Shown here piece by piece: positions 8,999 to 46,369 of a stretch of 64,000 bases of DNA. Numbering within the stretch: position 1 is the first letter of the stretch; each line of letters starts with the position of its first letter. The notes beneath the pieces are model-generated. The model ran no database searches. It was not told the origin of the DNA and saw only the letters and a program-made list of their open reading frames with translations. Location of the stretch: NCBI RefSeq assembly GCF_030817495.1, contig NZ_JAUSZK010000001.1, forward strand, positions 6,427,376 through 6,491,375. Direction: 5' to 3'. The translations under genes were made by a program, and so were the position numbers. The stretch comes from Streptomyces sp. V3I7 (GTDB lineage Bacteria; Actinomycetota; Actinomycetes; Streptomycetales; Streptomycetaceae).

Positions 8999-9382
8999 TC
9001 AGGCCCCCGACGAGCCCCCGCCGGAACCGTCATCCCCCGCCGCGGAATCACCCCCAGTCACAGAACCATCCCCCGCCCCACGCCACTGCAACGAAATCTC
9101 CAGATGCACCCCGGCCTTCGTACTCGCGATGACCGCCCCCAACTTGCTGTCCAGTTGCACCCCGAACTTCACCTGAACCTCGTCGGGCCTCCGGGCTTGC
9201 GCCCGGATCGTGCTCATCACCTCCTGGGCGGTGGCGGCGATCGGCGCGAGTGCCTGCTGAAGGGAGCGCGCCGCGTCCTGCACATGGTCGCTCATCCCGA
9301 CCAACTGGTCGCCGGCCCGGCCCGGCGGGGCGACGAGGACGGAGGTGCCGTCGGAAAGGGTGAACCGCACGATGTCTGCCAT
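8999..9382 (-). CDS. TRYPCO1 (trypsin-co-occurring domain 1) / CU044_2847-type protein
   Basis: A 127-residue protein matching the small family named for co-occurrence with trypsin-like proteases in bacterial conflict systems: opening beta strand IVRFTLSDGTSVLVA, a helical middle (LQQALAPIAATAQEVM), then VQVKFGVQLDSKLGAVIAST and VHLEISLQW. The last 25 residues are a Gly/Ser-rich tail. It lies 34 bases after the lipoprotein gene and is the last gene of the operon headed by the protease at 17197. Inference: it may be an adaptor or substrate of that protease. Confidence 0.8.
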   Translation of the reverse strand: MADIVRFTLSDGTSVLVAPPGRAGDQLVGMSDHVQDAARSLQQALAPIAATAQEVMSTIRAQARRPDEVQVKFGVQLDSKLGAVIASTKAGVHLEISLQWRGAGDGSVTGGDSAAGDDGSGGGSSGA

Positions 9383-9416
9383 GGAATGAGGACCGTCCTT
9401 CGCCGGGGCGCCCGGC

Positions 9417-10664
9417 TCACGAGGGGATGGAGCACAACTTGGCCCGCGGAACGGGGGAGCCGTGCAGTTTCCCCTGGACCACGTCGAGGTTCTTCAGGAG
9501 CGTCCCGAGCAGGCCCGGGTCGGCCGAGTAGTCGAGCACGGCCCGGTAGAAGGCGGCGGACACGTCGGCCTCCATGGCGTCGGCGGCACTGAAGCACAGG
9601 GTGTAACCCGCCTCGGGGCGCAGCATCTTGGCGATCCCCTGCCGGGCGGCGTCCGTGTACTCGCCCGGTGACACCTGCCCGTTGGGGCTGAGCGCCGAAC
9701 CGCCCTGCTGCTCCACCCAGAGCCGCTGCGCCGCCGCACCCGCGAGGTACCTGAGCAGCGCCATGGCGCTCTGGTCGTTGTCGTCGGTGAACTTGCCGAT
9801 GAAGTCGGCGGACACCTCAAGGGCACGCGTGGGCGACGAGGGGACGAAGCGGTAGCGCGCGCCCTCCAGCCCGAGGGCCGAGCGTGCGCCATGGGCCAGG
9901 GCGCACTTCGGGGGAGACGCCGTCATGCCGTGCGCCGCCTCTGAAGGACCTTGCGTCGCCGCGGACTTGGTGCTGTCCCGGACCAGGTCGTGCCAGGCGG
10001 TCCAGGACTTCCTCACCGCGTCCGACGTCCAGGCGCGGTCCTTCGTCAGCCAGTCCTCGTACGCCCGCGTCCCCCCGGGCCGGGCGAGCAGGAGGTCGGC
10101 GATCCAGTCGGCGCCCGGCCAGCCGGACGTCGGTCCGGACTCAAGACCCAGGCACCAGGTCCGGCCCTTGTCGCCGAGGGCAAGGAGCAGGCCGGGGAGG
10201 GAGGCGTACGTACGGGGGGTACGGGGCGTCCGCTCGGAGTCGTACCAGACGAGGCTCTTGACGTCGGCCTTGACGGGCAGCGCGTAGACCCCGCCGTTCT
10301 CTCCGGTCGCCAGCCCGCGGAAGGGCTGGAGGAAGGCGCGCGTGCTCACGCCCTTGAGCGCCTTCGCGGCGCCCGTCTCGGCGTAGTGCGTGACGGCGGC
10401 CGGGCTGGGGAGCACGGCGAGGTCGGGCGGGGCGTCGGCCGACACCGCGGCATCGAGCTGCTGGGTCTGCGCCCGGGTGACCTGCACGTCGACGTCGATG
10501 CCGGAGCTGAGCTCGAACTGTCTGAGCACGGTGTAGAACGCCGCGAACTCCTGCCCCGACCACGGCACCATGATCGTCACCCGGCCGTGCCGCGGCCCGC
10601 CGCCGCAGCCCGCGACCGCGAGCAGGAGAGCGAGGACCAGCGCCGCGCGCAGCATCCGGATCAT
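9417..10664 (-). CDS. Extracellular solute-binding lipoprotein in the protease-kinase operon
   Basis: A 415-residue lipoprotein with signal peptide and lipobox (LALLLAVAGCGGG, Cys20), so anchored outside the membrane. The mature part has the family-1 solute-binding look: VTIMVPWSGQE, then DLAVLPSPAAV, GGVYALPVKADVKSLVWYD and a C-terminal helical region. No ABC permease or ATPase is nearby, so it is unlikely to serve uptake. It overlaps the preceding membrane-protein gene by four bases (ATGA). Inference: it may be an external sensor feeding the operon's kinase and protease. Confidence 0.85.
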   Translation of the reverse strand: MIRMLRAALVLALLLAVAGCGGGPRHGRVTIMVPWSGQEFAAFYTVLRQFELSSGIDVDVQVTRAQTQQLDAAVSADAPPDLAVLPSPAAVTHYAETGAAKALKGVSTRAFLQPFRGLATGENGGVYALPVKADVKSLVWYDSERTPRTPRTYASLPGLLLALGDKGRTWCLGLESGPTSGWPGADWIADLLLARPGGTRAYEDWLTKDRAWTSDAVRKSWTAWHDLVRDSTKSAATQGPSEAAHGMTASPPKCALAHGARSALGLEGARYRFVPSSPTRALEVSADFIGKFTDDNDQSAMALLRYLAGAAAQRLWVEQQGGSALSPNGQVSPGEYTDAARQGIAKMLRPEAGYTLCFSAADAMEADVSAAFYRAVLDYSADPGLLGTLLKNLDVVQGKLHGSPVPRAKLCSIPS

Positions 10665-11662
10665 GCGCGGCCCCGCGCGTCCGGGAACGTGTACTCGGCG
10701 AGACGGGGACGGTAGCCGAGATGGACCAGCGCGCCCGCGGCGCTCAGCAGGATCAGCGCGCAGGCCATGGTCGCCGGGGAACTCGCGGCCGCGTCCCGGG
10801 GCAGGTGGTACGTGTCGCTGTGGACCAGCAGGCCGGTCCCGACGGCGACCCCGGTGGTGATCAGCAGCGCGGCGGCGAGACAGGGACTCGGGTAGCGGCG
10901 GAAGTGCCGGGCGACGACGTACCCCGTGGCGAGGACCAGACCCAGCAGGACGGCCACCGGGACGAGCAGCAGGGACCAGACGAGCACCGGGTCGAGCCAG
11001 CCCGACCCGCGCAGCCGGGTGAGCGCGCTCTGCTGGAGGTCCTCGAGATCGATCAGGGACTCTGTCAGACCGCCCGTGCCCCGGATCGGCCCCTCCTCAC
11101 CCTCGAAGCCAACTCCACGGGCTCGCTTGGCAGTCAGGGCCGCACGGGCGATGCCCATGCCCGCCTCCTTCGTACGGTCGTAGTCCCGCACCGCCGTGTC
11201 CGCGAGCCGTACGCAGGTGGTCAACTGGCCCTGGACGAACTGGAACTCGATGAGCCCCTCCCTGCCCGCCGCGTTCCCCTCGGCCGCCTGGGTCACCCAA
11301 CTGCTCACGCGAGCGGTCGCGTTGGTGAACCGGCTGCCCGTCCCGATCAACGGCACCTGCCGCGAGGCGACCGCCTCCGCGAGGGCCTGGTCCGCCCGCA
11401 CCGCCTCCGCACGGGCCTGCTCGACGTCCTCGACGGCCTCGTGCGCACAGCGCGCGGCGGCCACCTGGCGGTCCGCCTCCACGGAGACCAGCAGGTACAT
11501 GAGCGCCGTCACGAGCACCATCACCACCGTCCCCGCGCGCAGCGCCCGCAGCACCGCCACCGGATGCGCCCCGCGCAGCCGCCGCGCACGCCACCGGGCC
11601 GTCGTCGCCGCGGTCGTCCCCGTGGCCGCCGTCGCACGAGTCAGGGAGCCGGGACCGCTCAC
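10661..11662 (-). CDS. Membrane protein with large extracytoplasmic helical loop (conflict operon)
   Basis: A 333-residue protein of no named family. Residues 1-50 are basic and cytoplasmic; a membrane segment (VVMVLVTALMYLLVSV) follows, then about 170 residues rich in Ala, Glu and Arg, likely helical or coiled, and three further hydrophobic segments near the end (VWSLLLVPVAVLLGLVLATGYVV, CLAAALLITTGVAVGTGLLV, ACALILLSAAGALVHLGY). The start is GTG 11662, overlapping the vWA stop (GTGA). It would be the membrane anchor or signal relay between the external lipoprotein and the cytoplasmic components. Confidence 0.8.
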   Translation of the reverse strand: MSGPGSLTRATAATGTTAATTARWRARRLRGAHPVAVLRALRAGTVVMVLVTALMYLLVSVEADRQVAAARCAHEAVEDVEQARAEAVRADQALAEAVASRQVPLIGTGSRFTNATARVSSWVTQAAEGNAAGREGLIEFQFVQGQLTTCVRLADTAVRDYDRTKEAGMGIARAALTAKRARGVGFEGEEGPIRGTGGLTESLIDLEDLQQSALTRLRGSGWLDPVLVWSLLLVPVAVLLGLVLATGYVVARHFRRYPSPCLAAALLITTGVAVGTGLLVHSDTYHLPRDAAASSPATMACALILLSAAGALVHLGYRPRLAEYTFPDARGRA

Positions 11663-13209
11663 CGGGATCCCCCCGCGACGGAGCGCCCGCACTTCTCGCA
11701 GAACGCGTCGGCCGCGGCGACCGGTCTCCCGCAGTGCGGGCACGGCTGCCGGGCCTGCTCCGCCCCCTCCGGCCCGGGCGCCGTCGACGCGCCGGGGCGG
11801 TGCGGGCGCGTCGTACGGGCCGAGAGCACACCGAGGGCCTGCATCTCGCCGCGCGGCACGCCGTCCCGCAGCCGCCATCGCCCGTCGGCCCCCTGGTGTG
11901 CCACCGCCCGCAGCGCGCCCAGCCGGCCGGTGTCCCCGAGTTCCTCGGCCCTGCCCAGCGCCCGGCGCAGCGCTCGGTCGGCCCTGTCCCGGTCGTCCGC
12001 AGCCCAGGCATCGATGCAGTCGCTGATCGCCTCCCCCAGCTCACGCATGTTCTCCGCATGCGTGAGCCCCGCCGGCGGAGCGATGCCGACGCCGGGTGTG
12101 GGGAGGCGCTCCACGGCGATGTGCTGCTCGGGAACACAGGGGGAGTCCGGGGAGTCCCAGGAGTCCGGGACGTCGGGGGAGTCGGAGGAGCCCAGGGCGC
12201 CACCCGTCTCGGCGTGCAGCCCGAGGCGCAGCACCCGGGTCTTGGCACCGACGGTGAGCAGATCCGGCGCGTACGCCAGCGACACCTGGTAATGGCGCTC
12301 CTGCGCGGACCAGGAACCGAGCGGCACACGCACCCCGCCGCCGTCCTCCCGCTGCACGGCCAGGTCGGCCTCCACGGGATAGGTCTGCCGGACGAAGACC
12401 ACCCTGAAGCCGGCCCTGGGCCTCAGCCGCAGGTACACGCGCGGCACCACGATGCCCTGCACCCGCCGCATGAGCTGGGTGAAGTCCTCGGTGAGACCGG
12501 TGAGTTCGACCACGGCCTCGGCCTCGCCGTGCAACGCCTGGGCGATGCGCAGCACTTCACGGTAGTTCCAGTCCTCGCCGAATCCGCGCGCGTCGCAGAC
12601 GAAGTGGTCGGCGCACGCCGTCAGCGCGGCGGCGAGTTCCTCGGGCGTCTCGTGCTCGTCGATGCCGTCCGTGTAGAGCACGGCATGGCGTACGGTGCCG
12701 CGCGCCGAGGCCGCCTCCGAGGCGACGAAGAGCCGGTCGGCCCGCCGGAGCCAGGAGCCGATCCGTGTCCCGCCGGAGGGGACGACCGCGGCGATACGGG
12801 CCTTGGCCGCCTCGCGCACCGCGGCGTCGACCGGCGCCAGCCCGCCGCCCGGCGGATAGATCACCTCGGCCTCGTGGTGACCGGCGACGACACCCAGCAG
12901 GGTGCCGTCGCGCACCGCGTCGACCGCAGCCGCCAACGCGCTCTGCGCCGCGGCGAGTTTGCCGCGCGCGGCCATCGACAGGGAGCGGTCCATGATGAGG
13001 ACCTCGGCGCTCGGCGCCGCGGCAGCCGGTGTCTCGCCGGCGTGTGCCCGGACGGTGACGAGTGCGTCGAGGCGCGTCTCGTCGTACGCCACTTCCCTGG
13101 GCGCCTCCGGGAGCAGGGTGAAGGCCAGGCCCAGGCTCTCCGCATCCCCCAACGGAAAACCCCCGGTCGCATCGTCGCGTGTGCCACGTGTATCCGCGCG
13201 TAACCTCAC
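11659..13209 (-). CDS. vWA domain protein with C-terminal zinc ribbon
   Basis: A protein of about 516 residues. The von Willebrand A domain has its metal-ion-dependent adhesion motif DRSLSM (about residue 74), a distal SGGTRIGSW and LYTDGIDEHE. A beta-rich section and a helical stretch follow. The end is a four-cysteine zinc ribbon, CPHCGRP and CEKCGR. The likely start is GTG 13209, overlapping the kinase stop; ATG 13284 would extend it 25 residues inside the kinase gene. vWA proteins often scaffold AAA+ or kinase partners. Here the kinase and protease also carry or accompany zinc ribbons. Confidence 0.88.
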   Translation of the reverse strand: MRLRADTRGTRDDATGGFPLGDAESLGLAFTLLPEAPREVAYDETRLDALVTVRAHAGETPAAAAPSAEVLIMDRSLSMAARGKLAAAQSALAAAVDAVRDGTLLGVVAGHHEAEVIYPPGGGLAPVDAAVREAAKARIAAVVPSGGTRIGSWLRRADRLFVASEAASARGTVRHAVLYTDGIDEHETPEELAAALTACADHFVCDARGFGEDWNYREVLRIAQALHGEAEAVVELTGLTEDFTQLMRRVQGIVVPRVYLRLRPRAGFRVVFVRQTYPVEADLAVQREDGGGVRVPLGSWSAQERHYQVSLAYAPDLLTVGAKTRVLRLGLHAETGGALGSSDSPDVPDSWDSPDSPCVPEQHIAVERLPTPGVGIAPPAGLTHAENMRELGEAISDCIDAWAADDRDRADRALRRALGRAEELGDTGRLGALRAVAHQGADGRWRLRDGVPRGEMQALGVLSARTTRPHRPGASTAPGPEGAEQARQPCPHCGRPVAAADAFCEKCGRSVAGGSR

Positions 13210-15392
13210 GAGGAGCTTAACTGCCGTCGGGACGAATCGGAACGGGACTGACGACTCCGGCCACTTCGCCCCCGCCAGCTCCAACTCAACGGCGGACGCA
13301 GCCGGTTGACGAGGTCGACGAGAGCGACGTACTCGCGTTCCCCGGGAGCGTGCGGGGCCAGCGCGCGGACCGTCTCCGACAGTTCGAGCCGGTCCTGGCC
13401 GCGCAGGAACGCGGCGTACTGGATCTCCGCCTCCAGCCCCGCACGCCCCGCGTCGTCGACATCGAGCCCGGCCAGGGCCGCTCGCGCCGCCGCCAGATCA
13501 CCCTCCGCCGCCAGATCACCCTGCGTCGGCACCGCGCCGTGCGGTGGCCCGATGACGGCGGTGCGCAGTCGTACGGCGGCGATGCGGGCCTCGCGCTGGT
13601 AGCGGAACTCCTGCGCCAGCCGATCCACCACCTCGGCCGCCGCGTTCCGCCGCCCGGTGTGCAGATGGACACGGGCCATGCCGAAGCCGGCGGCGGCGAG
13701 CGCGGGGGCGGTCTCGAACACCGTGCGGTAGTACATCAGGGCGGCGGCGGCGTCACCGGGAGGCGCCGAGGCCGTTGATTCCCGTACAGCATCGGGGAGT
13801 TCGGCACACAGCCCGAGCGCGAGGAGCGGAAGCAGCTCGCCGGGCAGCGCTGCGCGGACCACGTTGAAGTGACCGGCGGCGGCCGGTACGCGACTGCCGA
13901 GCAGGGCGACCAGACCCGAGTACCAGGCATGCAGCCAATGCCACTGCGGCAGCCCCGTTCCCGCGAGGGCATGCCGAGCACCCTCCGCATCGCCGTCGCG
14001 TACGGCCTGCCGACAGGCGGCGAGGGCACCTTGGGTCGCGGCGGGGAGTCCGGGATCGTCGGGGTCGGTCACGGGCGTGGGCAGCGCGGACGCGATCTCC
14101 GGGGGCCGCGGGCAGGAGAACGGGGCGGCGAGGACGGGCGATCCGGCCGTGTCCGTACGGGCATCGGTCCAGTCGCTGAGCGGCCGCAGCGAGCCGAGCC
14201 CGCCGTGCAGCGGCTCGCGCATCGGCCCGAACAGAGCGGAGGGGCGGGTGACTTGACGCCCGGTGGGCGACACGGCCACCACCTGCCGTACGACACCACT
14301 GAGTTGCTCCGCGAACTGCCGCGCCGACACGAACCGCCGCCCGGGTACCTCACGGTCCGTGGCCCGCTCCAGCAGGAGCACGAGCGCGCGCACCCCGGGC
14401 GCCGACAGGTCCCGTACATGGGCGGCGCACACCTCCTGCAACGTCCTGCCGACGGTGAACAGGTCGAACCCGGGGGAGGGTTCACTCCGCTCCGGATCGT
14501 TCGGGGGCGGCGCGTAGAACTCCGTGTACGCCTGGAGCGGCCGCCTGTCCCGCAGCCTGCGCACGGCACCGAAGTCGATCACCCGCACCCGGTCCAGCGC
14601 GGTGCCGCCCCGCTCGTCCGCGAAACGGATGATGTTGAGCGGCTTGACGTCGCAGTGCAGCAGCTCGCGGTCGTGAAGGTACTCCAGCGCCTGGAGGATG
14701 CGGATGCCGTGCGCCAGCAGGGTCTCCAGACGGTCGTCACGATGCGCGGTGAAGGGGGCGCCCGGCACGTACTCCAGGGCGAGGTACCGCCCCTCCTTCG
14801 CGTAGTCGAGGATGCGCACGATCGCGTCGTGCCGGAGACTGACGAGCGCCTCCCGCTCCTCCTCGGCCGTCTCGGCCACGGAGGCCGCCAACTCCTTGAT
14901 GACCACAGGGGCCTTGAGATTGCGGTCCCAGGCGAGGTACGCCGCCCCGTACGCCCCGGAGCCGAGCAGCAGCCGAAGCTCGTACCGATCGCCGACGACA
15001 CGGCCCCACACATCGGTGAAGTCGAAGGCCGTACCGCATCTACCGCAGTAGCCGCGGGTGAGCCCCGGCTCCCCGTCACGCGCGCGCCCGACGGGTAGTT
15101 GGCAGGCCGGGTTGGGACAGTACCGGTGCTCCTCCGCGACGGGACCGGGGGACCGGGCGGCCGGGAGGGAGGGAAGCGGACGGTCAGGAACGAGCCCGAG
15201 TCCGTACCAGGGATCGGGCCGTACGGGCGCCACCCCGACGGCGCCCTGCGGCAGGGCCCGCGGGCCCTGCGCGGACGACGGGGAGCTGCCCCCGTCCGCC
15301 CCGTCCCGGGGGAGCGGCTCGCGGTCGCAGACGGAGCAGAAGCCCTCGTCGTCGACGTCGCCCTGACCGCAGTCGTCGCGATTGCACCGCAT
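13206..15392 (-). CDS. Zinc-ribbon Ser/Thr protein kinase with C-terminal helical (TPR-like) region, PknG-like
   Basis: A 728-residue cytoplasmic kinase. It starts with a zinc ribbon (Cys3, Cys8, Cys19, Cys22). A second follows (CPNPAC and CGRCG) before the kinase core at about residue 130. Core motifs are GSGAYGAAY (P-loop), VVIKEL (catalytic Lys), HCDVKPLNI (HRD variant with Cys) and VIDFGAVRR (DFG). The C-terminal 300 residues look like TPR-type helices. This order recalls PknG. The start ATG 15392 shares a base with the protease stop (TGATG). The last 20 residues are Ser/Arg-rich and atypical, overlapping the vWA start region. Confidence 0.92.
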   Translation of the reverse strand: MRCNRDDCGQGDVDDEGFCSVCDREPLPRDGADGGSSPSSAQGPRALPQGAVGVAPVRPDPWYGLGLVPDRPLPSLPAARSPGPVAEEHRYCPNPACQLPVGRARDGEPGLTRGYCGRCGTAFDFTDVWGRVVGDRYELRLLLGSGAYGAAYLAWDRNLKAPVVIKELAASVAETAEEEREALVSLRHDAIVRILDYAKEGRYLALEYVPGAPFTAHRDDRLETLLAHGIRILQALEYLHDRELLHCDVKPLNIIRFADERGGTALDRVRVIDFGAVRRLRDRRPLQAYTEFYAPPPNDPERSEPSPGFDLFTVGRTLQEVCAAHVRDLSAPGVRALVLLLERATDREVPGRRFVSARQFAEQLSGVVRQVVAVSPTGRQVTRPSALFGPMREPLHGGLGSLRPLSDWTDARTDTAGSPVLAAPFSCPRPPEIASALPTPVTDPDDPGLPAATQGALAACRQAVRDGDAEGARHALAGTGLPQWHWLHAWYSGLVALLGSRVPAAAGHFNVVRAALPGELLPLLALGLCAELPDAVRESTASAPPGDAAAALMYYRTVFETAPALAAAGFGMARVHLHTGRRNAAAEVVDRLAQEFRYQREARIAAVRLRTAVIGPPHGAVPTQGDLAAEGDLAAARAALAGLDVDDAGRAGLEAEIQYAAFLRGQDRLELSETVRALAPHAPGEREYVALVDLVNRLRPPLSWSWRGRSGRSRQSRSDSSRRQLSSS

Positions 15393-17197
15393 CACGCGTT
15401 CTCCTCCCACTGGTTCGGCTCCGGTGGCCGGTCGTGCGGGTCCTGCCGCTCCTCCTCCCGCGCGTCCTCAGCGATACGGCGGTCGACCTCCCGTACGTAG
15501 TCTTCGACGGCCCGCCGCGCCGCGGCGAGGTCGACGGGCTCGTGCCGCAGCGCCTCGGCGGCGGGGCCGTGCAGGGCGCCGAGCGAGGGGTCCTCGGCGC
15601 CGAATCGGTCGGCGGCGCGTACCCGGTGCAGCTCCAGCGTCCGCACCAGGTCGCGCCACGCCTCCGTCATGCGCAGCGACGTCCGTACGTACCCCTCGGC
15701 AGCCTTGCGTGCACGCTCGGCGAACGCGCACGCGGCGGCGAGCTCGGTGTTGGGCCCGGTCTGCCGGGCGAAGGCGAGGCGGACCCGTACCCGGGGCGCG
15801 GCGGGCGCGGGAAGCCGCGGCGCGGCGAAGAACTTCACCCCCCACTCCAGATGCTGCCGAAGCGCCTCGTCCTCCGCCGCGCAGAGGGCGTCCAGAGCTT
15901 GCAGCGCCTGCTCGGCGGAGGCGATGCCGGGTCCGGCGGTGGGTAGCGGTAGCGGTTCGGGGTCGAGGAACACGTCGTAGGGCAGCTGTTCGGGCGGCCG
16001 CCCCGCGAAGCCGAGCACGAGCCGCAGCCCGCGCGAGCGGGCCCGCCGGGCGAGAGGCCCGAGCAAGTCCTGTACCAGCACCGCGGAGTCCACGGCCCGG
16101 TCGACCCCGCCCACCACGATGCAGGGCGGCGGCCGCCGTCTGGCCAACTGCATGGCCAGGTCGCCGTCGGCGGCGAGCCCGAAGCGCTCGGTCAGATATG
16201 TACGTACGTCGGCGAGGGACTTCCCGGCCGCGTCGTAGGCGGCGTCGATGGTGCCCGGGGCGAGGGCGGTGTCCTCGCGTACGGTGGCGTGGGCGTGGGC
16301 GTGGGCGTGGGCGTCGGTGCCGGCGTCGTTCGAGGCCGTGGCGCGCGCGGTGGGATCGGCCGTGCGCACCAGCCGTACCAGCCACGAGGCACCCGCCGAG
16401 GTCCTGGTCCCGGTGCCGACCACGACGGTGCCCGTCCACCCGCTCTGCAGAAGCCGCGTGAGCTCTTGCGTCAGCGCGAGCCGCAGCGGGTCGCCCAGCA
16501 CCTCACCATCGGCCGGACTGTCGGCGGGATCGAAGGCGTTGGTGCGCGACCCGGCGGCGTACGCCTCCAGCCGGGGCAGGTAGCCGGTGATCGTCTCGGT
16601 CGGCAGCATCCAGGCGCCCTCGACGTCGTCGTCCCTGTGGTTCGCCACGACGATCCCGATCAGGCACTCGGCGAACTCGTCGCCCTGCGCCACCACCCCG
16701 GCGCCCGAGTAACCCGGCACGATCCACTGCGCCCGTCCCAACGGCCGGATCAGCTGCCCGAGTTCGCCCCGGTAGCCTCCCGAACCGGTCAACTCGGCCA
16801 GCGCCCACATGCCGTCCCGCGCACTCCCCTTGAACCCGTATGCACGCACATGCCCACCGGACAGCGGCACCCGCCACAACGACACACGCTCAGCACACGC
16901 CACCGGCTCCTGCAGCTCCAGCAACGTCACATCACCCGGCGGCACCCGGTTCCGCGGCAGGACGCCCTCCTGAACGACCCAGGTCCCGGGAACGACCCGC
17001 GCCGTACGGCTCCACTCCGGCGTACAAGCCACACTCCGGATCCGCAACGGGACGTCACGGCCCCCGGCCCCGACGACGACATGCGCGCAGGTGAGCACAT
17101 GCGCCTCGTCGAGCAGCACCCCGGCTCCGTGAGGCTCACCGCGCGTGTCGTCCACTCTTACGCGCCACGGGTGCTCTCTGTGTCTGTGATCCCCCAT
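15392..17197 (-). CDS. Trypsin-like serine protease fused to a degenerate STAND/NTPase-like region
   Basis: A 601-residue protein heading a six-gene operon. The N-terminal 210 residues are a trypsin-like domain with the complete triad: His39 in TCAHVV, Asp89 in GDVTLLEL and Ser164 in GYSGAGV. No signal peptide is visible, so it acts in the cytoplasm. Residues 240-480 resemble a P-loop NTPase without a working P-loop (GTGTRTSAGAS where GxxGxGK[ST] would be, and CIVVGGVDRA in the Walker B place). The rest is helical. A short His-Ala repeat (residues 296-303) is encoded by a hexanucleotide repeat. The start is ATG 17197; no ribosome site precedes it, so it may be leaderless. Confidence 0.9.
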   Translation of the reverse strand: MGDHRHREHPWRVRVDDTRGEPHGAGVLLDEAHVLTCAHVVVGAGGRDVPLRIRSVACTPEWSRTARVVPGTWVVQEGVLPRNRVPPGDVTLLELQEPVACAERVSLWRVPLSGGHVRAYGFKGSARDGMWALAELTGSGGYRGELGQLIRPLGRAQWIVPGYSGAGVVAQGDEFAECLIGIVVANHRDDDVEGAWMLPTETITGYLPRLEAYAAGSRTNAFDPADSPADGEVLGDPLRLALTQELTRLLQSGWTGTVVVGTGTRTSAGASWLVRLVRTADPTARATASNDAGTDAHAHAHAHATVREDTALAPGTIDAAYDAAGKSLADVRTYLTERFGLAADGDLAMQLARRRPPPCIVVGGVDRAVDSAVLVQDLLGPLARRARSRGLRLVLGFAGRPPEQLPYDVFLDPEPLPLPTAGPGIASAEQALQALDALCAAEDEALRQHLEWGVKFFAAPRLPAPAAPRVRVRLAFARQTGPNTELAAACAFAERARKAAEGYVRTSLRMTEAWRDLVRTLELHRVRAADRFGAEDPSLGALHGPAAEALRHEPVDLAAARRAVEDYVREVDRRIAEDAREEERQDPHDRPPEPNQWEENA

Positions 17198-18849: not shown

Positions 18850-19578
18850 GACTTGACCAAGGGTGGGACCGGCACCCCGTGATGGTGCTCTTCTTTCGCG
18901 GCCAGCGCCTCAGCAGCGGGCGGCAGCGTGAATTCTCCCGTGTCTGGGGTGAGTTGGAGACGAACCCCTCCTGGAGCCTGGTGGCGGGATGGGTGGTGGG
19001 GTTCGGTAGGAGGGTCGTGTCGGTGTCCGGTTTCGAGATTGTGTGGCATGTGGTTGTTGCTTTCCGTGAGCGGCGGCCCGGGATGGGTGTCGTGCTTCGG
19101 CTGGGTGTGGTTCCGTCGTTCGGCGGGGATACTCTGTGGGCTGACATGGCCGCTGCCTGCGACAACCTGCCGGACGGGGTGAGAGCGCGCGTCGACGGGG
19201 TTGTGGTGGAGCACGTTTTCGTGCCTGGCTTCCGGTGCTTGTTCGGGGTGCGGCGGCTTGCCCGTCGGCAGGACGTGTTCCCCGCTGGTGGCTCATCCTG
19301 TCGTACGGCGGTATCCGGAGACCGGACGGCGGGTGTTGTTTGTGGACACGTCGTTCACTACTTGGATCCTCGGGTTCGAACGGGCCGGGAGTGACCGGTG
19401 GTTGTGCCTGTTGTTCCAGCGGGCGTATGTGCCGGAGTTCGAGGTGCGGTTTTGCTGGCAGGCCGGGGACATCGCGTTCTGGGACAACCGGGCCACGCAG
19501 GCCTACGTGGTGGCCGACTACGGTGACGCGCGCGGGGTCGTCGAGCGTGTCGCGATCGCGGGGGGCCGGCCGTACTGA
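18850..19578 (+). pseudogene. TauD/TfdA-family dioxygenase pseudogene
   Basis: The plus strand carries a recognisable but broken Fe(II)/2-oxoglutarate dioxygenase. VLFFRGQRL, then FRERRPGM and GGDTLWADMAAACDNLPDGVR, run in one frame to about 19215. Then HPVVRRYPETGRRVLFVD, RAYVPEFEVRF, AGDIAFWDNRATQAYVVADY continue in another frame to TGA 19576-19578. A frameshift therefore lies near 19215-19285. The HxD metal motif is ruined (WHVVV instead of WHxDV) and no start is evident. It is dead. Confidence 0.75.
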
Positions 19579-22764: not shown

Positions 22765-25700
22765 TCATCGCCCTGTTCCTGACTGCAGCATGCGCAGCAG
22801 GAGAGCGGGGACGGAGATGTCTGTGGCGGTGACGAAGTCGTGCACGGCATCGGGCAGCTGAAGGCCTTGCCGGTGGAGCCGCTGGCGCAGGTTGTCCGCG
22901 ACGTCCGGGGACAGGGTGGTGGCCGCGCTCCGGAGAGAGGCGAGCTGCGCGGCCTGGGCATCGGAGGTGTCCGCACTGGTGATGGCGGCGTCGGCCTGAG
23001 CGCGAGCTTCGGGATCACGTTCCAGGCGGCGGATGACGGCCTGGGCGAACGGCGGGTCGACGTCCTTGGTGAAGTGACTGCAGATCCATGCGCTGTCGTG
23101 GGCTACCTGGTCCACGAAGCCGGCAGTCTCGACGGCTGCGTAGGCCAGCGGGTAATACACCGACACGTCCACCTCGACGTGTCCGTGCAGGTCGCGCTCG
23201 CGTTGGAGGGCCTCCCAGGCGCCGGCGACGGCTGTGTCGTCGGGGAACCCGGCGGCCAGGGCGAGGAACGCACCCGAGGCGGGGAGCGGGTAACCGCCGC
23301 GTCCTGGGCCCAGTTCGGTGTGCAGTGCGCGTTGCACGCTCGCCGGGTCGAGGCCGAGGACCAGGGGGTCGGCCAGGAGCAGGGGTGCGACGTCCCGGCT
23401 TCCGGTGTCGCTCGGCCGGAGGTTGTCGATCAGGGTTCGCAGCAGGTGCGGCTCGCCGCGGTGAGTGTGGGCGTACCAGGCGAGCACGGTGTCGTGGGTG
23501 AGGAGGTCGGGTTGCTGGTCGACGGCCGCGGTGAGTTCTTGCGCGAGCTGGGGGTGGCGGTCGGCGACCAGCGCAAGATACTCCCAGGCCGTGTCCGTGG
23601 CGGGGGAGAGCATGTCGCCGGTGAGGCGTGTGAGGAGGGTGTCGCCGAAGTGGGCGCATAGAGCGGGCCAGTGGTCGGCGATCTCGCCGAGCACGAGCAG
23701 GTCGAGGTCGGTGCTGATGAATTCACCCAGGGGCAGCCGGATGGGGCGGCCGTCGTGTTCGACGAGGTCGTCCAGCAGGCCGAGTTGGCCGGTCAGCAGG
23801 ATGCCCACCCATGCGGCACGCCGCCGTGCCCAGTTGTTGTGGCCGAGGCCTGAGGCGGTGTCGCGGAGTACGGACTGGGCCTGCTGCCATTCCAGTTCGG
23901 GAAGCGCGCCGCGGTCGTGGTCGCGCAGCAGGTGGGTGTGGAACACGGCGGAGGCGGCGGGGCGGATGAGGTCGTGGGGCTCGTTTGGCCACTGAGCGGT
24001 CAGCTGCCGGATGAGGCTGCTGTCGCCGGGATGGTCGCGTAGCAGGGTGCACAGGTGCAGGCGGGCGGCGGTGGGCAGGACCGGGTGGGCGGCTCGCACC
24101 CGGTCGAGGACGGGCTCGAGGGCGGAGGGCTCGCTGCCGTAGCCGGCCAGAAGCGATCCAAGTGGGGCCTGCGGTCTGCGCAGCATGCTGGCCGCGCGGT
24201 CGCGGGCCGAAGCGGTTGCGGGCAGGGCGGCGATGACCGCGGCTTCGGCAGTGAACTCGTATTCGTTGGCGGGTTCTTGCACCGCCTCCAGGCACACTCG
24301 GGCGATCTGCTCGGCCACCGGCCCCGAGGTCAGGGACTGGTGCTGGCAGCTCTCCAGCAGCGCATGGATGACGATTTCCTTGCGGAAGCGGCTGTCTTGT
24401 GCCGGTGCTGGTATGGCAAGGAGGGCGAGCAGCCGCTCCCGGGCCTGCTCGGCGCCCAGGACTCGCACGGCCGCGTTGGCCACCCGTGATGCCCGGCCTG
24501 CCTCGCCGTTCAGCACCGCGCACAGCGCCTGCTGCACCTCGGCGTCGTGGGCCCAGTGCTCGGCCAGGGCATCGGCGGCCCAGTGCGGGACCTCGCTGTC
24601 GTGCAACTCCTTCAGCAGCACGGACCGCAGCACCGGGCCCTGGTCCAGGGCAACGAGGGAGGGGAGCTCGAAGTCGAGGAAGGCCCGTGGATCCTGTTGC
24701 AGGAGTTCCTCGGCCGCGGCGGCCACGACCGTATGGCCAGGGTAGGCGCGGGCCAGCGCCCCGATGCCAAGGAACCGGATCTGGTGCGGGTCGTTCACCA
24801 GCGTGGTGCAGATGTAGTCGATGACGGTCGCATCCTGGGACCAGGCCAGCAGCAGCACACTCCAGGCCACAGCTCGGTCGCCCTGTTCGGGGCGCTGGCC
24901 GGACACGATGGACAGGCAGGTGTCGCGCACCTGTTCGGCCTCGCCGGGAGCTTCACGCAGGGCGGCCGCGATCGTGTCGGCGAGCACAGGCTTCCACACG
25001 TCGTCGGTGAAATCCTCGGTGTCGAGTCGGCTGACCAGCCAGGCGCGCTCTTCGGCCGTCACGGCCTTCGGCTGCGGGCCGCCGGCCTTGCGGCCGGTGG
25101 TGTGCTGCCCAGGCAGTACGCCCAGGACGGCGGCCAGGGCCGTCAGCCGCAGCCCCAGCACCTGCTGCTGCCGGGCAGCTGCAGCCGCGGCCGTGACCCG
25201 GTCATCATCGGGCCAGCCCAGCAGCAGACCGTGCAGGGTCACGGCTGCGTGATCGGCACTGGCTGCGTGGCGCAGCGCCGTCAGCATCGCCTCAACTACG
25301 TGCTCCTGCCCGTCCCCCGTCCCGTAGCGGGCGGCGAGCGCGCGGGCGGCCGCCCAGGCCACGTGCACGTCCTCTGACCTCAACGCGGCCACCAGCAGTG
25401 GCCAGACGGGCTTGGCCAGCTGCCGGTCGTCGGCCACCTGCCCGAGCCGGTAAAACACCTGCCACGGCAGCGGCTGACCGGCCGCAACCCAGCGTGACAG
25501 GTACGGCACCAGATCACCGCTCACTGATGGATCGTCCAGCCCGGCCACACACGCCGACAGCAGCCGCTGTCGGTGCCCGACGAGGGGGTGGCTGTCGACC
25601 GCTTCCAGGATCGTGGCGGCGTGACGCCGAGCCTGGGGGAGAGGCAGCCGGATCCCGCCGAACACGACCTGTGCCACCAGCTCGCGCACTGCCAGTGCTT

Positions 25701-28008
25701 CCGGTTCCGGCCCGTCGGCCTGCTCGGCGAGTTCCTTAAGCAGCAGGCTGGTCTCCTCGGCGCGCTGCAGCTGCCACAGGATGGCCAACAGCACCTCATG
25801 CCAGCGTGGGTCCTGGGCGTGCTGGGCGAACAGGCGGCGCAGTTCGTCGAAGGACAGCTGCTGTGCGGCCTGTTCGGCGGCCAGCTGTTCCAGCAGGACC
25901 CGGTGCAGGAAGCCGATCTCGCGCGGGCCTTGGCGGACCAGCACGCCGAGCTGCCCCTCGGCGATGTCGACAAACCCTCGCGCCTGCGCGGCGGCTCCCG
26001 AGGCATCCAGCGCGAGGTGTCGTGGATCGCGAAGCGCGTCGATGATGTCCGCGCGGACTGTCTGTTCGGGCACGGCCTGGACATCGCCGCGCTGCTGGTG
26101 GGCCAGCGCAACGTGGGCCAGGACCTGACGGATGTCGTCCGGGTGCAGTGCGGTGTGCTCCGCGGTAATGCCGGCCGCCGTCTCACGCCGGGCGGGATGT
26201 TCCCCCAGCAGATGATCAATGGCGCCCGCGTACACCTCGAACCGCCTGTGCGGCAGGGCAGTCCCGGCCAGGCGCATGCCGGTGAGCAGGAGCAGGAAGA
26301 GCGGAATCCGGGCCAGCTGGCGAAGGTCCCGGACGCCGGACAGTTCCTTCACGAACGCCTCGGCCTGCGGGCCGCCGTCCGTCTCAGCGGCGCCGAGCCA
26401 GTGAGCCACCAACTCCCGCTGCTGGCGCGACGTGAGCGGGGCCAGCGAGGCGTACTGCCACACTCCCGTCGGCTGCAGCCGCGACAGGCCGTAGGGGCGG
26501 GTGGCGGCCACCGCGGGCAGCTGGCGTTGGTCCAGGAAAGTCTCCAGTGCGGTGAGAGCCCTGCGCGCAGCACTCTCGCTCACCCATTCGTCCAGGCCGT
26601 CGATGACCAGCAGCAGCCGGTCATCGGCCAGTGCCTTCTCCACCAGCGGCCACAGATGCCCGACGTCGTACTGCTCCAGCCAGGCCCACAGCGTCGCCGC
26701 CAGCGAGGCCTCGGCGCCGTCGTAGCGGGCCAGCCGGCGGGTGAAGAACGGGAAGGGAACCCACAGGGGCAGCCGGCCGCCGAACCGTTCGGTCCAGCGC
26801 GGCAGGGCAGGGGAGTCGGCGAACAGGTCCAACAGCGCGAAACGCAGAAGACTGCTCTTGCCCGAGCCTGCTTCCCCGATCAGGACATGGCGTCGGGCCC
26901 CGGCCAGCCAGGCGTCCGCGCTGGTGCGGATCCCGGTGGCCTCCCCGGTCACTGCCGGGGACGCGGTGCTGACGGCCACTATCTGCTCCCCGACCTCGGA
27001 GCCATGCACGCTGAGCGCCTTCCCCAGCTCGTCGGGATGGTGGCCGAAGGCGGACGCTCGCGCCTTGCGGTACCAGGCCGTGGGGGACATGCCGGGGGAG
27101 AGCGCGTCTGGTGGTGACAGATGGGCAGGCCAGCGGCCCAGTCGGTGCAGCGGGAGCACGTCGGGAAGGACGAATCGCTGCCGCAGATCCGGCTGGGCCT
27201 GGGCGTGCTGCAGGGCGATTGCGCCGGAGTCGGTGTGGGCGAAGAAGGTGGCGTAGAAGGAACCGAGCTGTGCACGCAGATCGGCGACCTGCACGGCATC
27301 GAGCCGGGTCGCCAAAGCGGTCACCTGCTCGGGCCCGAACAGTTCCTCCACCCATGCGCGGCCGAAGAAGTCGTGGACGACTTGCGGGCGTTGCTTCAGC
27401 CAGGCCGACAGATACTCCGCATCCCACACCTCGAAGGTGATGCCCGCACGCGCCAGCCGTTTACGCTGCGTCACCACCTCGTCGGCGGTCTTTTGCGGGA
27501 CGGCCGACAGACTGGTGGCGTAGACGAAGACCCGGCTGACCGCAGCCCACGTGCCGTCCAGGAAGTCAGTGACGGCCTCCTTGAGCTGCCTGGCGGTCAG
27601 CGACTTCACCCGCCGCGACTGCAGACTCAGGTAGACGCGCTCGGGATCAGAGCCGTTCTCCGCGGAGGCGTCAGGCAGACGGACATACAGATCGATGCCC
27701 TGCTGCTCCTGGCCCCGAGTGCCGTACAGGCTTCCCTGCGCCTGGGCGTCGTAGGCGCTCAAGCGCCCGGTGACACTGTCGCCCCCGGCGTGATCGGCGG
27801 AGTCCTCGACCGTCCCGCGCTCCACCGCCCGCTTCAGGCACAGCCGCTCGAAGTTCTCCCACGCCAGATGCTCCAGCGGCAGGAGCTGCTCGCTCGTATG
27901 GACGGGCAGCGGAACCGTCTGCGGCGATACCAGCGTGTGCAGCCGGGCCGGCGCCTTGGTGTACTGGGACGGGCTCATCGAGAGTGTGTGCCGCATGCAC
28001 CCCATCAT
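22765..28008 (-). CDS. Giant Mrr-like nuclease / NACHT ATPase / alpha-repeat protein (antiphage-type)
   Basis: About 1,747 residues. Residues 40-215 resemble an Mrr-type PD-(D/E)xK nuclease: a helix LAWENFERLCLKRA, then GIDLYV (catalytic Asp near 107) and YLSLQSRR (Q/R in place of the usual ExK). A NACHT-type NTPase follows: Walker A IGEAGSGKSS (about 379) and Walker B LLLVIDGLDEW (about 467). The C-terminal 1,000 residues are helical repeats, HEAT/ARM-like, the usual sensor part of such proteins. Several ATGs (28008, 28005, 27996, 27978) are possible; none has a strong ribosome site. Known relatives (Avs, bNACHT) defend against phage, so a similar role is inferred. Confidence 0.85.
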   Translation of the reverse strand: MMGCMRHTLSMSPSQYTKAPARLHTLVSPQTVPLPVHTSEQLLPLEHLAWENFERLCLKRAVERGTVEDSADHAGGDSVTGRLSAYDAQAQGSLYGTRGQEQQGIDLYVRLPDASAENGSDPERVYLSLQSRRVKSLTARQLKEAVTDFLDGTWAAVSRVFVYATSLSAVPQKTADEVVTQRKRLARAGITFEVWDAEYLSAWLKQRPQVVHDFFGRAWVEELFGPEQVTALATRLDAVQVADLRAQLGSFYATFFAHTDSGAIALQHAQAQPDLRQRFVLPDVLPLHRLGRWPAHLSPPDALSPGMSPTAWYRKARASAFGHHPDELGKALSVHGSEVGEQIVAVSTASPAVTGEATGIRTSADAWLAGARRHVLIGEAGSGKSSLLRFALLDLFADSPALPRWTERFGGRLPLWVPFPFFTRRLARYDGAEASLAATLWAWLEQYDVGHLWPLVEKALADDRLLLVIDGLDEWVSESAARRALTALETFLDQRQLPAVAATRPYGLSRLQPTGVWQYASLAPLTSRQQRELVAHWLGAAETDGGPQAEAFVKELSGVRDLRQLARIPLFLLLLTGMRLAGTALPHRRFEVYAGAIDHLLGEHPARRETAAGITAEHTALHPDDIRQVLAHVALAHQQRGDVQAVPEQTVRADIIDALRDPRHLALDASGAAAQARGFVDIAEGQLGVLVRQGPREIGFLHRVLLEQLAAEQAAQQLSFDELRRLFAQHAQDPRWHEVLLAILWQLQRAEETSLLLKELAEQADGPEPEALAVRELVAQVVFGGIRLPLPQARRHAATILEAVDSHPLVGHRQRLLSACVAGLDDPSVSGDLVPYLSRWVAAGQPLPWQVFYRLGQVADDRQLAKPVWPLLVAALRSEDVHVAWAAARALAARYGTGDGQEHVVEAMLTALRHAASADHAAVTLHGLLLGWPDDDRVTAAAAAARQQQVLGLRLTALAAVLGVLPGQHTTGRKAGGPQPKAVTAEERAWLVSRLDTEDFTDDVWKPVLADTIAAALREAPGEAEQVRDTCLSIVSGQRPEQGDRAVAWSVLLLAWSQDATVIDYICTTLVNDPHQIRFLGIGALARAYPGHTVVAAAAEELLQQDPRAFLDFELPSLVALDQGPVLRSVLLKELHDSEVPHWAADALAEHWAHDAEVQQALCAVLNGEAGRASRVANAAVRVLGAEQARERLLALLAIPAPAQDSRFRKEIVIHALLESCQHQSLTSGPVAEQIARVCLEAVQEPANEYEFTAEAAVIAALPATASARDRAASMLRRPQAPLGSLLAGYGSEPSALEPVLDRVRAAHPVLPTAARLHLCTLLRDHPGDSSLIRQLTAQWPNEPHDLIRPAASAVFHTHLLRDHDRGALPELEWQQAQSVLRDTASGLGHNNWARRRAAWVGILLTGQLGLLDDLVEHDGRPIRLPLGEFISTDLDLLVLGEIADHWPALCAHFGDTLLTRLTGDMLSPATDTAWEYLALVADRHPQLAQELTAAVDQQPDLLTHDTVLAWYAHTHRGEPHLLRTLIDNLRPSDTGSRDVAPLLLADPLVLGLDPASVQRALHTELGPGRGGYPLPASGAFLALAAGFPDDTAVAGAWEALQRERDLHGHVEVDVSVYYPLAYAAVETAGFVDQVAHDSAWICSHFTKDVDPPFAQAVIRRLERDPEARAQADAAITSADTSDAQAAQLASLRSAATTLSPDVADNLRQRLHRQGLQLPDAVHDFVTATDISVPALLLRMLQSGTGR

Positions 28009-28170
28009 CAATCACAACTTGCGAGCTCACCGCTGGTCGCTGGGCGCCGGGCAGCACGAGGTCGGCGATACGGGGTTTGCGGTGCATGGTCTGCCCAGGG
28101 GCCGCCGAAGAACCGGGCTGTCGTCTTATCGGCCGTCTGAGGACAGGGCTGCACCGGGCGGGTTTATGGC

Positions 28171-28198
28171 CCGCGCAGTGCTTCGCTCTACTGCGCGG
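28171..28198 (-). terminator. Hairpin at the end of the STAND NTPase gene
   Basis: Arms CCGCGCAGT (28171-28179) and ACTGCGCGG (28190-28198) pair perfectly across a 10-base loop that contains the TAG stop. No T tract follows. It may terminate or attenuate read-through toward the NACHT gene. Confidence 0.45.
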
Positions 28199-30641: not shown

Positions 30642-30827
30642 CACAGCACAATGCGTGCGCGCAGGTCACACCGTGAGTCACAAGCGGATCGTTGCGCTCC
30701 GTCGAAAACGTGTGCCGCAGAGTTAACCCTGGGGGTGCTGCGCAGCGGTGAAGGGGTGAGGCCGCAAGGCTTCCCCTCGCTCAGCAATGACGCGGTGCGG
30801 GGGCCAAGTTGAGCAAAAGGAGGGTCC

Positions 30828-32406: not shown

Positions 32407-32674
32407 ATTACAGATCGTGACGGCGGTCGGTGACGAGGGCCGCCATTGGTCGCGAACGGCGTCCTCGCTGCCGTGACATCGAGCAGCGTGTACGCCCCAC
32501 GAACGTCTCGCCGATCTGGACACGCCGGCCGCCCTCCGACCCGGGCGGGTAGATCACGACAGGCGGTGCGGTACTCATGGCACCAGCGTGCGATCTGCGC
32601 CGACAGCGCGCATGCGAGCCGCCTGTGGCGCTCATACGCTGGTGCTGCTCGGGGACTGCCGCGGAGGTACTCCC

Positions 32675-33538
32675 ATGACCCGAGCCATCTGGTCCGGAGC
32701 CATCTCGTTCGGCCTGGTCACCGTGCCGGTCCAGGTGGCCACCGCAACCGCCGACCACAGCGTCCGCTTTCACCAGTACCACTTGTCTGATCAGGGCCGG
32801 ATCCGCTACCGCAAGGTGTGCGAGCTGGAGGATCGCGAGATCCCTGAAGGCGAGATCGGCAAGGGGTACGAGCTGACGAAGGCGCGAATCATCCCGATCA
32901 GCGACGAAGAGCTGCACGATCTGCCGCTGCCGACGGCCAGGGCGATCGAGATCGTCACCTTCGTCTCGTGGGCGTCCATCGATCCGATACGGATCGGGGA
33001 GGGCTACTACCTGGCGGCACGCGAGCAGTTGGCCGCCAAGCCGTACCGGCTGCTGGTCGAGGCGCTGCGCCGCTCCTCACGGGTGGCGGTCGTGAAGTGG
33101 GCGTGGCACGGCCGCGAGCGCCTCGGCTTGCTCCGGGTCCGCGAGGACGCGCTCGTCATGCACGTCATGCACTGGCCCGACGAGATCCGCGACCCGTCCG
33201 AGCTGGTGCCGCCGCCGGTCGAGGTGAGCGACGCAGAGATCGACGGGGCCCTCACCCTCATGGACGCGATGGCCGTCGACAGCCTCGAAGGGCCTGAGTT
33301 CGGCGACCGGTACACCGAGGCGCTGGAACAGGTCATCGACGCGAAGCGCGAGGACCGTCCGCCGCCCGAAGCACCCGAGCCGGCTGCCGGACCGGGCACG
33401 GTGCTGGATCTCATGGCGGCGCTCCAGGAGAGCGTGGCCAAGGCGCAGGCCGCGCGCGGCGAAGCACCCGAGCAGAAGAGAACGGCCGCGCGGAAGCGGC
33501 CGGCCAAGAAGACGGCGCCGACTCGGAGAGGCAGCTAG
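32675..33538 (+). CDS. ku: Ku protein, DNA double-strand-break end-binding
   Basis: A 287-residue bacterial Ku of the non-homologous end-joining pathway. The core is complete: the opening TRAIWSGAISFGLVTVPV, then FHQYHL, YRKVCELED, GYELTKARI and the ring-forming middle. The tail is a Lys/Arg-rich extension (KRTAARKRPAKK) used for end threading. The start is ATG 32675 after GGAGG; upstream frames are unsupported. The TAG stop (33536-33538) lies in the target duplication of the inserted IS481 element, so the insertion left the protein intact. No ligase gene is adjacent. Confidence 0.95.
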   Translation: MTRAIWSGAISFGLVTVPVQVATATADHSVRFHQYHLSDQGRIRYRKVCELEDREIPEGEIGKGYELTKARIIPISDEELHDLPLPTARAIEIVTFVSWASIDPIRIGEGYYLAAREQLAAKPYRLLVEALRRSSRVAVVKWAWHGRERLGLLRVREDALVMHVMHWPDEIRDPSELVPPPVEVSDAEIDGALTLMDAMAVDSLEGPEFGDRYTEALEQVIDAKREDRPPPEAPEPAAGPGTVLDLMAALQESVAKAQAARGEAPEQKRTAARKRPAKKTAPTRRGS

Positions 33539-46237: not shown

Positions 46238-46348
46238 GACCTGGGATTTTAAGCTGCACGGTGCGACTGGCTGACGATCACGCTTACCGTCCGATCGGGT
46301 ACAGCCGCCGTCAACCTCCGCGCGCAGCTCCGTGGGGCCCGCTACGAA

Positions 46349-46369
46349 GATCACGTCCCGTTCGTGATC
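46349..46369. promoter_or_regulatory. Dyad GATCACG-N7-CGTGATC upstream of the HNH gene
   Basis: GATCACG (46349-46355) and CGTGATC (46363-46369) form a perfect inverted repeat 17 bases before the GTG start. The same dyad, with a different centre, lies in the same place before the second HNH copy (47533-47553). Conservation of the arms but not the centre suggests a protein-binding site or RNA hairpin. Confidence 0.55.

What the first reader, a model, noticed from the sequence alone, without database searches (positions are those of the whole stretch)
8999..17197. Six-gene protease/kinase/vWA/membrane/lipoprotein/TRYPCO1 operon
All genes are on one strand, and the first five overlap by one to four bases. 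The set unites a cytoplasmic trypsin-like protease, a double zinc-ribbon kinase, a vWA-zinc ribbon protein, a membrane protein, a solute-binding lipoprotein and a TRYPCO1 protein. The TRYPCO/trypsin association is known from analyses of NTP-dependent conflict systems, but the particular combination with an external lipoprotein suggests a transmembrane danger or nutrient sensor linked to regulated proteolysis.
Basis: partly seen in the sequence, partly recalled or inferred. Interest (0 to 1): 0.78.

Follow-up and report, generated by a model that had tools for sequence, protein, structure and literature searches.

The report
PknG sensor kinase wired to protease
Six co-oriented genes in a Streptomyces-like bacterium look like a second version of the known PknG nutrient-sensing relay, in which an outside binding protein signals through the membrane to a kinase, here joined to a protein-cutting enzyme and a small protein known from bacterial defence systems.

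Summary
The six genes and their near-overlapping layout are real. The order is conserved: of 78 loci found with the protease alone, 42 have all six genes in order, 15 have the first five, and 4 agree up to a contig end. It is PknG-type (rubredoxin, kinase, PknG TPR). The membrane protein is a shortened GlnX-type relay. The lipoprotein is an SBP, but not of the GlnH family. The operon is thus a paralogue of the GlnH-GlnX-PknG sensory cascade; the same genome also holds the canonical locus. Added are a trypsin fused to a degenerate AAA+/STAND-like domain, and TRYPCO1. The protease's C-terminal domain is homologous to a protein encoded next to canonical pknG. Most relays of both kinds end in an R-L/I-x-E-Y tail, a candidate docking peptide for the PknG TPR. 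Protease-linked and canonical kinases separate by one branch. I propose: outside ligand, SBP, GlnX-like relay, PknG, then control of the cytoplasmic protease with vWA and TRYPCO1. Direction, ligand and substrate are inferred. Whether the output is immunity, development or nutrient adaptation is open.

The parts
15392..17197 (-). Cytoplasmic trypsin-like protease (601 aa): trypsin domain, degenerate AAA+/STAND-like middle domain, C-terminal helical domain
   Evidence: Pfam Trypsin_2; triad H39/D89/S164 conserved in 81 of 81 aligned rows, some being one genome under two ids; model pLDDT 85
15926..16510 (-). Middle domain (residues 230-424), AAA+/STAND-like fold without the P-loop lysine
15413..15700 (-). 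C-terminal helical domain (about residues 500-595) homologous to the coil protein next to canonical pknG
   Evidence: hhalign long-form protease vs coil prob 98.7, E 1.5e-16; reversed control 0.3; short form 85.9, reversed 0.3
13206..15392 (-). PknG-type Ser/Thr kinase: N-terminal zinc ribbon, rubredoxin, kinase, PknG TPR
   Evidence: Pfam; best solved relative PknG 2pzi E 6.5e-40, best non-PknG kinase 6.9e-11; K166, D248, N253, D273 (167, 249, 254, 274's numbering) invariant in all three groups
11659..13209 (-). vWA protein with intact MIDAS and a C-terminal zinc ribbon
   Evidence: Pfam; MIDAS D74 and D181 in 98 of 98, S76, S78 and T148 in 95 of 98 (54, 161, 56, 58, 128's numbering)
10661..11662 (-). 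GlnX-type membrane relay, four hydrophobic segments, second extracytoplasmic domain almost lost
   Evidence: hhalign short vs long form 99.8, long form vs GlnX 99.0; direct short form vs GlnX 6.7, not significant; segments
10691..10705 (-). RLAEY motif in the cytoplasmic tail, candidate docking peptide for the kinase TPR
   Evidence: Tail motif in 36 of 36 distinct short-form, 31 of 41 long-form, 21 of 21 canonical GlnX tails; 1 of 1511 background ORFs
9417..10664 (-). SBP_bac_8 extracellular solute-binding lipoprotein
   Evidence: Pfam; lipobox in sequence; nearest solved relatives are maltodextrin-binding proteins, many as fusion tags, weak
8999..9382 (-). TRYPCO1 protein
   Evidence: Pfam PF19493 1.1e-22; the only Trypco1 match found in the genome

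Best explanation
The operon encodes a second, paralogous PknG signalling module whose output is a cytoplasmic protease. An SBP lipoprotein binds an extracytoplasmic ligand (sugar-type family, so probably not Asp/Glu) and engages a GlnX-type membrane protein. The relay's short cytoplasmic tail (RLAEY) contacts the TPR domain of a PknG-type kinase and switches it on. The active kinase, held in a complex with the vWA protein, phosphorylates the protease or its partners (protease C-terminal domain, vWA or TRYPCO1), releasing or blocking proteolysis by the trypsin domain; the degenerate AAA+ domain acts as an oligomerisation or binding platform. Shown: gene set, order, intact kinase, protease and vWA sites, homologies, a separate canonical PknG in the same genome. 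Inferred: the signalling direction, tail-TPR docking, phosphorylation target, and ligand.
For: At least five genes in order in 57 of 78 protease-selected loci. A second PknG at the SBP operon in 23 of 23 chosen operon-bearing genomes, one PknG only in 5 of 5 chosen without it; each of the 28 has a match of at least 189 bits away from the SBP operon. Canonical locus glnX-glnH-coil-pknG-PP2C-vWA-FHA in 21 of 21 same-genus loci that I chose by their PknG match, own genome included, so coil, kinase, vWA and relay each have a counterpart. hhalign with reversed controls. Shared tail motif. Kinase tree: 41 protease-linked and 18 canonical rows split by one branch, SH-aLRT 100. Protease and kinase fused in one ORF in L122 and L129. 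Protease-kinase-vWA units beside a GlnX/GlnH-type pair and TRYPCO1 in L046, L178, L187. The known GlnH-GlnX-PknG cascade (PMC6069109, PMC9769921, PMC8546545, passages read).
Against: Short-form relay vs canonical GlnX is not significant directly (prob 6.7); homology rests on the long form and the tail. The SBP is not GlnH's family. No FHA substrate or PP2C lies in the operon. TRYPCO1 was not detected in 15 of the 57 loci with five or more genes, nor in the 13 five-gene loci among 20 intermediate same-genus SBP matches. Ten of 41 distinct long-form tails lack the motif, as does the relay of L187. Some PknG-SBP loci have no detected protease (L124, L125, L170-L172), so sensor and kinase can exist without it. 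No biochemical data.
Confidence: 0.7

Rival explanations
1. A conflict (immunity or programmed death) system that borrowed a PknG sensor: damage or invasion activates the trypsin, which cleaves host or invader proteins.
For: Trypsin plus TRYPCO1 plus vWA plus an inactive AAA+/STAND-like domain recall trypsin-bearing VMAP and iSTAND systems (PMC7159879, passages). The window also carries NACHT and type I-E-like CRISPR-Cas genes.
Against: No MoxR or VMAP in the six proteins; PADLOC hits only for the kinase, to kinase-bearing models; an external SBP lipoprotein is an odd phage sensor; no further gene such as a nuclease is conserved beside it.
Confidence: 0.3
2. A plain nutrient regulator: the kinase still acts on GarA/OdhI-like FHA proteins, and the protease merely tunes turnover of metabolic enzymes.
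For: All relay components are nutrient-sensor types; the canonical locus in the same genome includes an FHA gene. Micromonospora G297 and G301 show only one PknG match, in the protease locus.
Against: No FHA gene in the operon; protease conserved with its triad (81 of 81 rows) and fused to the kinase in two genomes, which suggests direct coupling.
Confidence: 0.3
3. The protease acts upstream: it cleaves the kinase N-terminal or zinc-ribbon region to switch the kinase on.
For: Two protease-kinase fusions; protease is the first gene, next to the kinase.
Against: Some PknG-SBP loci lack a detected protease.
Confidence: 0.2
4. Unrelated genes transcribed together, the SBP serving an ABC importer.
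For: SBP_bac_8 proteins usually serve importers (general knowledge, no call).
Against: Order conserved across families; no conserved seventh gene such as a permease (best cluster 17 of 58 loci in mixed positions and strands); gene fusions.
Confidence: 0.04

Closest known systems
GlnH-GlnX-PknG amino-acid sensing cascade (Mycobacterium, Corynebacterium)
   Same: SBP lipoprotein, four-segment membrane relay, cytoplasmic PknG kinase with TPR; conserved operon (PMC6069109, PMC9769921, PMC8546545, passages)
   Different: SBP of another family; relay has lost most of its second extracytoplasmic domain; no FHA substrate in the operon; protease, vWA and TRYPCO1 present
Canonical PknG locus of this genome (L004)
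   Same: Counterparts of kinase, vWA, relay and the protease C-terminal domain
   Different: Coil protein without trypsin; SBP_bac_3; PP2C and FHA genes; no TRYPCO1; vWA lacks the C-terminal zinc ribbon (0 of 21 canonical)
MoxR-vWA ternary conflict systems (VMAP, iSTAND) with trypsin and Trypco1
   Same: Trypsin, TRYPCO1, vWA, inactive AAA+/STAND-like domain fused behind a peptidase (PMC7159879, passages)
   Different: No MoxR, no VMAP hit; input is a kinase with an external SBP; the paper calls iSTAND systems almost entirely absent in actinobacteria
Actinobacterial GAP1-N2 neighbourhoods with zinc-ribbon kinase, PP2C and vWA
   Same: Zinc-ribbon kinase with stand-alone vWA (PMC7159879, passage)
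   Different: GTPase/GAP1 core not seen here; 'PknG' and 'solute-binding' occur 0 times in that paper's main text
SBP-linked Ser/Thr kinases of Streptomyces named in PMC6069109 (SGR_4432, SCO1468)
   Same: A kinase gene linked to an SBP gene; the paper proposes SBPs as kinase sensors (passage read)
   Different: Described there as beyond PknG; no protease, vWA or Trypco1 mentioned in the passage; I did not examine these genes
Trypsin-nuclease pairs of Hachiman, AVAST, Lamassu and DRT
   Same: Defence-type trypsin fused to a regulatory protein (PMC12799240, abstract and passages)
   Different: No conserved further gene such as a nuclease beside the operon

Membership tests
PknG kinase family | Rubredoxin, kinase and PknG TPR domains | tested here: met
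   PF16919, PF00069, PF16918 all above cut-off; nearest solved kinases are PknG
PknG kinase family | Intact catalytic residues | tested here: met
   K166, D248, N253, D273 invariant in 35 short-form, 41 long-form and 21 canonical rows (there numbered one higher)
GlnH-GlnX-PknG cascade | GlnX-type membrane relay | tested here: met
   Via the long form (prob 99.0) and the tail motif; direct comparison prob 6.7, not significant
GlnH-GlnX-PknG cascade | Extracytoplasmic SBP lipoprotein | tested here: met
   SBP_bac_8 with lipobox
GlnH-GlnX-PknG cascade | SBP of the GlnH (SBP_bac_3) family | tested here: not met
   SBP_bac_8 here vs SBP_bac_3 in the canonical locus
GlnH-GlnX-PknG cascade | FHA substrate (GarA/OdhI) regulated by the kinase | not testable with these tools
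   No FHA gene in the operon; one in the canonical locus
GlnH-GlnX-PknG cascade | Asp/Glu as ligand | not testable with these tools
   Needs binding assays
MoxR-vWA ternary conflict system | Trypsin with Trypco1 | tested here: met
MoxR-vWA ternary conflict system | vWA with MIDAS | tested here: met
MoxR-vWA ternary conflict system | MoxR AAA+ ATPase | tested here: not met
   None among the six proteins
MoxR-vWA ternary conflict system | VMAP-C or iSTAND third component | tested here: inconclusive
   Middle domain is AAA+/STAND-like but has no Pfam assignment (AAA_16 in 1 of 38 members, E 0.0021)

The most novel reading that the evidence does not exclude
A Ser/Thr-kinase receptor cascade (SBP, GlnX relay, PknG) directly gates a cytoplasmic executioner-type trypsin, so that an extracellular chemical cue triggers regulated proteolysis, possibly cell death or differentiation, in multicellular actinobacteria. 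The RLxEYR tail is the general docking code by which GlnX proteins address PknG kinases, in this and in the canonical pathway.
Probability: 0.35. Interest if true: 0.86.

Novelty: new variant of a known kind. Interest (0 to 1): 0.72.

Why it matters
In the papers read, PknG is tied to one sensor pair and a metabolic output, and its contact with GlnX is proposed rather than located. This operon shows a second, widely distributed PknG module with another sensor family and a protease as likely output, linking nutrient-type sensing to conflict-type proteolysis. The shared cytoplasmic tail motif offers a short, mutable candidate for the GlnX-to-PknG contact.

Tried and rejected
Considered and rejected: independent genes (order conserved); catalytically dead protease, kinase or vWA; SBP serving a neighbouring importer (no conserved permease); recent tandem duplication as origin. 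In G105 the canonical locus and the protease operon lie next to each other on one strand, but the G105 kinase groups with the other protease-linked kinases, so it is not a recent copy of its neighbour.

Led nowhere: promoter and terminator scan (0 promoter-like sites; 2 terminator-like against 1.4 expected); PADLOC (only kinase models); Pfam on the middle domain (weak scattered hits); Foldseek of the whole protease (the 50 rows shown are nearly all S1-type proteases matched over the trypsin part); solved structures for TRYPCO1 (7 designed proteins, best E 0.0025); a lipobox count over the SBP family, which I discard because the stretch searched often began after the signal peptide; GlnX tails from the protein search (all 120 listed of 2492 read RRLSEYR, but those with an organism name are Streptomyces, so this adds little breadth); a class-wide search for GlnX tails, never answered.

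Limits: the 78 loci were chosen by the protease and are the best of 222 confirmed stretches. Some G-handle loci are the same genomes as named loci, so loci of different calls must not be summed. Short and long form were split by one score cut on the relay; L025 fell on the long side though its kinase groups with the short form. Rows dropped: kinases of 550 aa or less and identical rows (98 kept); proteases of 480 aa or less (81 kept); L036 as a fusion, because its kinase runs on in another frame. One search used a hand-picked subset of the earlier 98 rows (10 short-form, 27 long-form, 7 canonical, L046) plus 14 new rows; 'canonical' there means GlnX/GlnH-linked without a protease, and L188 counts as protease-linked on a weak hit. 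The two trees are quick ones (SH-aLRT only) and their root is not known. The counts 17 of 18 and 32 of 34 in the full report were made by hand from the listings, of which one search's was cut short.

Full report
What is there. The window lies in a 6.55 Mb genome of two contigs. Six minus-strand genes occupy 8999-17197. The first five overlap by 1, 4, 4 and 4 bases; TRYPCO1 follows after 34 bases. Pfam gives Trypsin_2, PknG rubredoxin plus kinase plus PknG TPR, vWA with a zinc ribbon just under cut-off, nothing above cut-off for the membrane protein, SBP_bac_8, and Trypco1.

The kinase is PknG-type. Its best solved relative is PknG (2pzi, E 6.5e-40); the best non-PknG kinase is at 6.9e-11. The genome has a second, canonical PknG elsewhere (TPR 1.8e-85 against 2.1e-24 here). 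The canonical locus (L004) reads glnX, glnH (SBP_bac_3), a coil protein, pknG, PP2C, vWA, FHA. The same order was found in 20 of 20 further same-genus loci, chosen by me from the PknG matches.

Gene-by-gene correspondence. Kinase and vWA are shared families. The long-form relay aligns with canonical GlnX over 275 columns (prob 99.0, E 6e-18; reversed control 8.7). Short and long relays align at 99.8; short form against GlnX directly is not significant (6.7). By hydropathy, canonical GlnX has segments at 60-78, 229-247, 262-280 and 447-465; the window protein at 43-61, 226-244, 262-280 and 291-309, so the second extracytoplasmic domain is almost gone. The protease C-terminus corresponds to the coil protein (long form 98.7, short form 85.9; reversed controls 0.3). 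The SBP belongs to another family than GlnH.

The tail motif. Canonical GlnX and these relays end shortly after the last hydrophobic segment. R[LIVMH]x[ED]Y occurs in the last 30 residues of 36 of 36 distinct short-form relays, 31 of 41 long-form relays and 21 of 21 canonical GlnX, against 1 of 1511 background ORFs and 0 of 75 background ORFs with a hydrophobic end. All 11 canonical GlnX proteins fetched from the genomes of loci of other genera (Amycolatopsis twice, Actinokineospora, Saccharothrix, Lentzea, Actinosynnema, Actinoplanes, Nocardiopsis, Kitasatospora, Streptantibioticus, Actinacidiphila) end in RLxEYR. Of the three relays in hybrid loci, L178 ends RLEEYR, L046 RIKDYL and L187 RIRRYL, the last without the motif. 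PMC6069109 (passages) predicts a 6-residue cytoplasmic C-terminus of GlnX and suggests the termini as TPR ligands. 'EYR' has 0 occurrences in the main texts of PMC6069109, PMC8546545 and PMC9769921.

Conservation. A profile of 37 proteases found 78 loci: 42 with all six genes in order on one strand, 15 with the first five, L009, L055, L011 and L061 consistent until the contig ends, L046 a variant, and 16 with the trypsin in other settings. In 295 same-genus genomes, 100 match the protease profile at E up to 1e-20, many only in the trypsin domain. Counting by hand, 18 matches are short-form (E up to 4.9e-228); 17 have the SBP match on the same contig within about 7 kb, and the other (G256) has it on another contig. 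Of 34 weaker matches spanning 300 or more model positions, 32 have an SBP match on the same contig within about 8 kb; G139 and G112 have it on another contig. In 28 genomes that I chose, each has a PknG match of at least 189 bits away from the SBP operon; the 23 with the SBP operon have another PknG there and the 5 without it have one only. Of 15 genomes reached through loci, Micromonospora G297 and G301 and Planotetraspora G299 show only one PknG match, in the protease locus. Of 20 intermediate same-genus SBP matches, 13 have the first five genes, 2 have protease and kinase in one ORF with the SBP downstream, and 5 have no protease-kinase pair.

Kinase tree. 41 protease-linked kinases and 18 canonical ones (several families) fall on two sides of one branch, SH-aLRT 100. 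An earlier tree of 98 rows with same-genus canonicals only agrees.

Coupling between parts. Protease and kinase are one ORF in L122 (1501 aa) and L129 (1220 aa). In L046, L178 and L187 a protease-kinase-vWA unit lies beside a GlnX/GlnH-type pair with TRYPCO1, which suggests that the sensor pair can be exchanged; GlnH there is assigned by profile score only. No seventh gene is conserved within 6 kb (best cluster 17 of 58 loci, mixed position and strand).

Active sites. Triad H39/D89/S164 in 81 of 81 protease rows. Kinase K166, D248, N253, D273 invariant; the lysine two after the catalytic Asp is K in 85% of long-form rows. MIDAS D74 and D181 in 98 of 98, S76, S78 and T148 in 95 of 98. The vWA C-terminal zinc ribbon is in 35 of 36 short-form and 38 of 41 long-form proteins and 0 of 21 canonical ones. 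Numbers here follow the window proteins; searches count from the match start (one higher and twenty lower).

Mechanism. By analogy with GlnH-GlnX-PknG, ligand-bound SBP engages the relay, its tail signals to the TPR domain, and the kinase acts on the protease complex. Only components, order, homologies and intact sites are shown; direction, ligand and substrate are inferred. SBP_bac_8 and weak similarity to maltodextrin-binding proteins favour a sugar-type ligand, without proof.

Literature. Searches in the held library: PknG with Streptomyces, trypsin and von Willebrand, 0 papers; PknG with trypsin-like, actinobacteria and operon, 0; five of six terms describing the operon, 0; PknG with Streptomyces and GlnX, 6 papers, 5 listed, of which I read passages of one (PMC6069109). 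That paper names Streptomyces kinases linked to SBPs beyond PknG (SGR_4432, SCO1468). Supplementary files and most subscription papers were not searched, so a prior listing of this neighbourhood cannot be excluded.

Noticed in passing
window 49118-58660: Type I-E-like CRISPR-Cas genes on the minus strand: Cas3, Cse1, Cas5, CRISPR_assoc and Cas1.
   Followed up: no
window 22765-30644: A 1748-aa NACHT protein and an 818-aa protein with weak AAA hits, adjacent and co-oriented; may be a second conflict locus.
   Followed up: no
window 32588-33538: Ku70/80-family gene.
   Followed up: no
window 19201-19578: A 125-aa ORF matching only the last third of the TauD dioxygenase profile, perhaps a gene remnant.
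   Followed up: no
window 46261-47061: ORF with a GmrSD restriction C-terminal domain.
   Followed up: no
L046 5879-15477; L178; L187: Protease-kinase-vWA units paired with a GlnX/GlnH-type pair and TRYPCO1 instead of the SBP_bac_8 sensor.
   Followed up: partly
L126 and L173 (G105): Canonical PknG locus and protease-linked PknG operon directly adjacent on one strand.
   Followed up: partly
L124, L125, L170, L171, L172: PknG-like kinase with an SBP and in some a relay, but no detected protease or vWA: a further PknG variant.
   Followed up: partly
Canonical GlnX, e.g. L004:3027-4445: C-terminal RLxEYR: all 120 listed homologues (of 2492 matched) end in RRLSEYR.
   Followed up: yes
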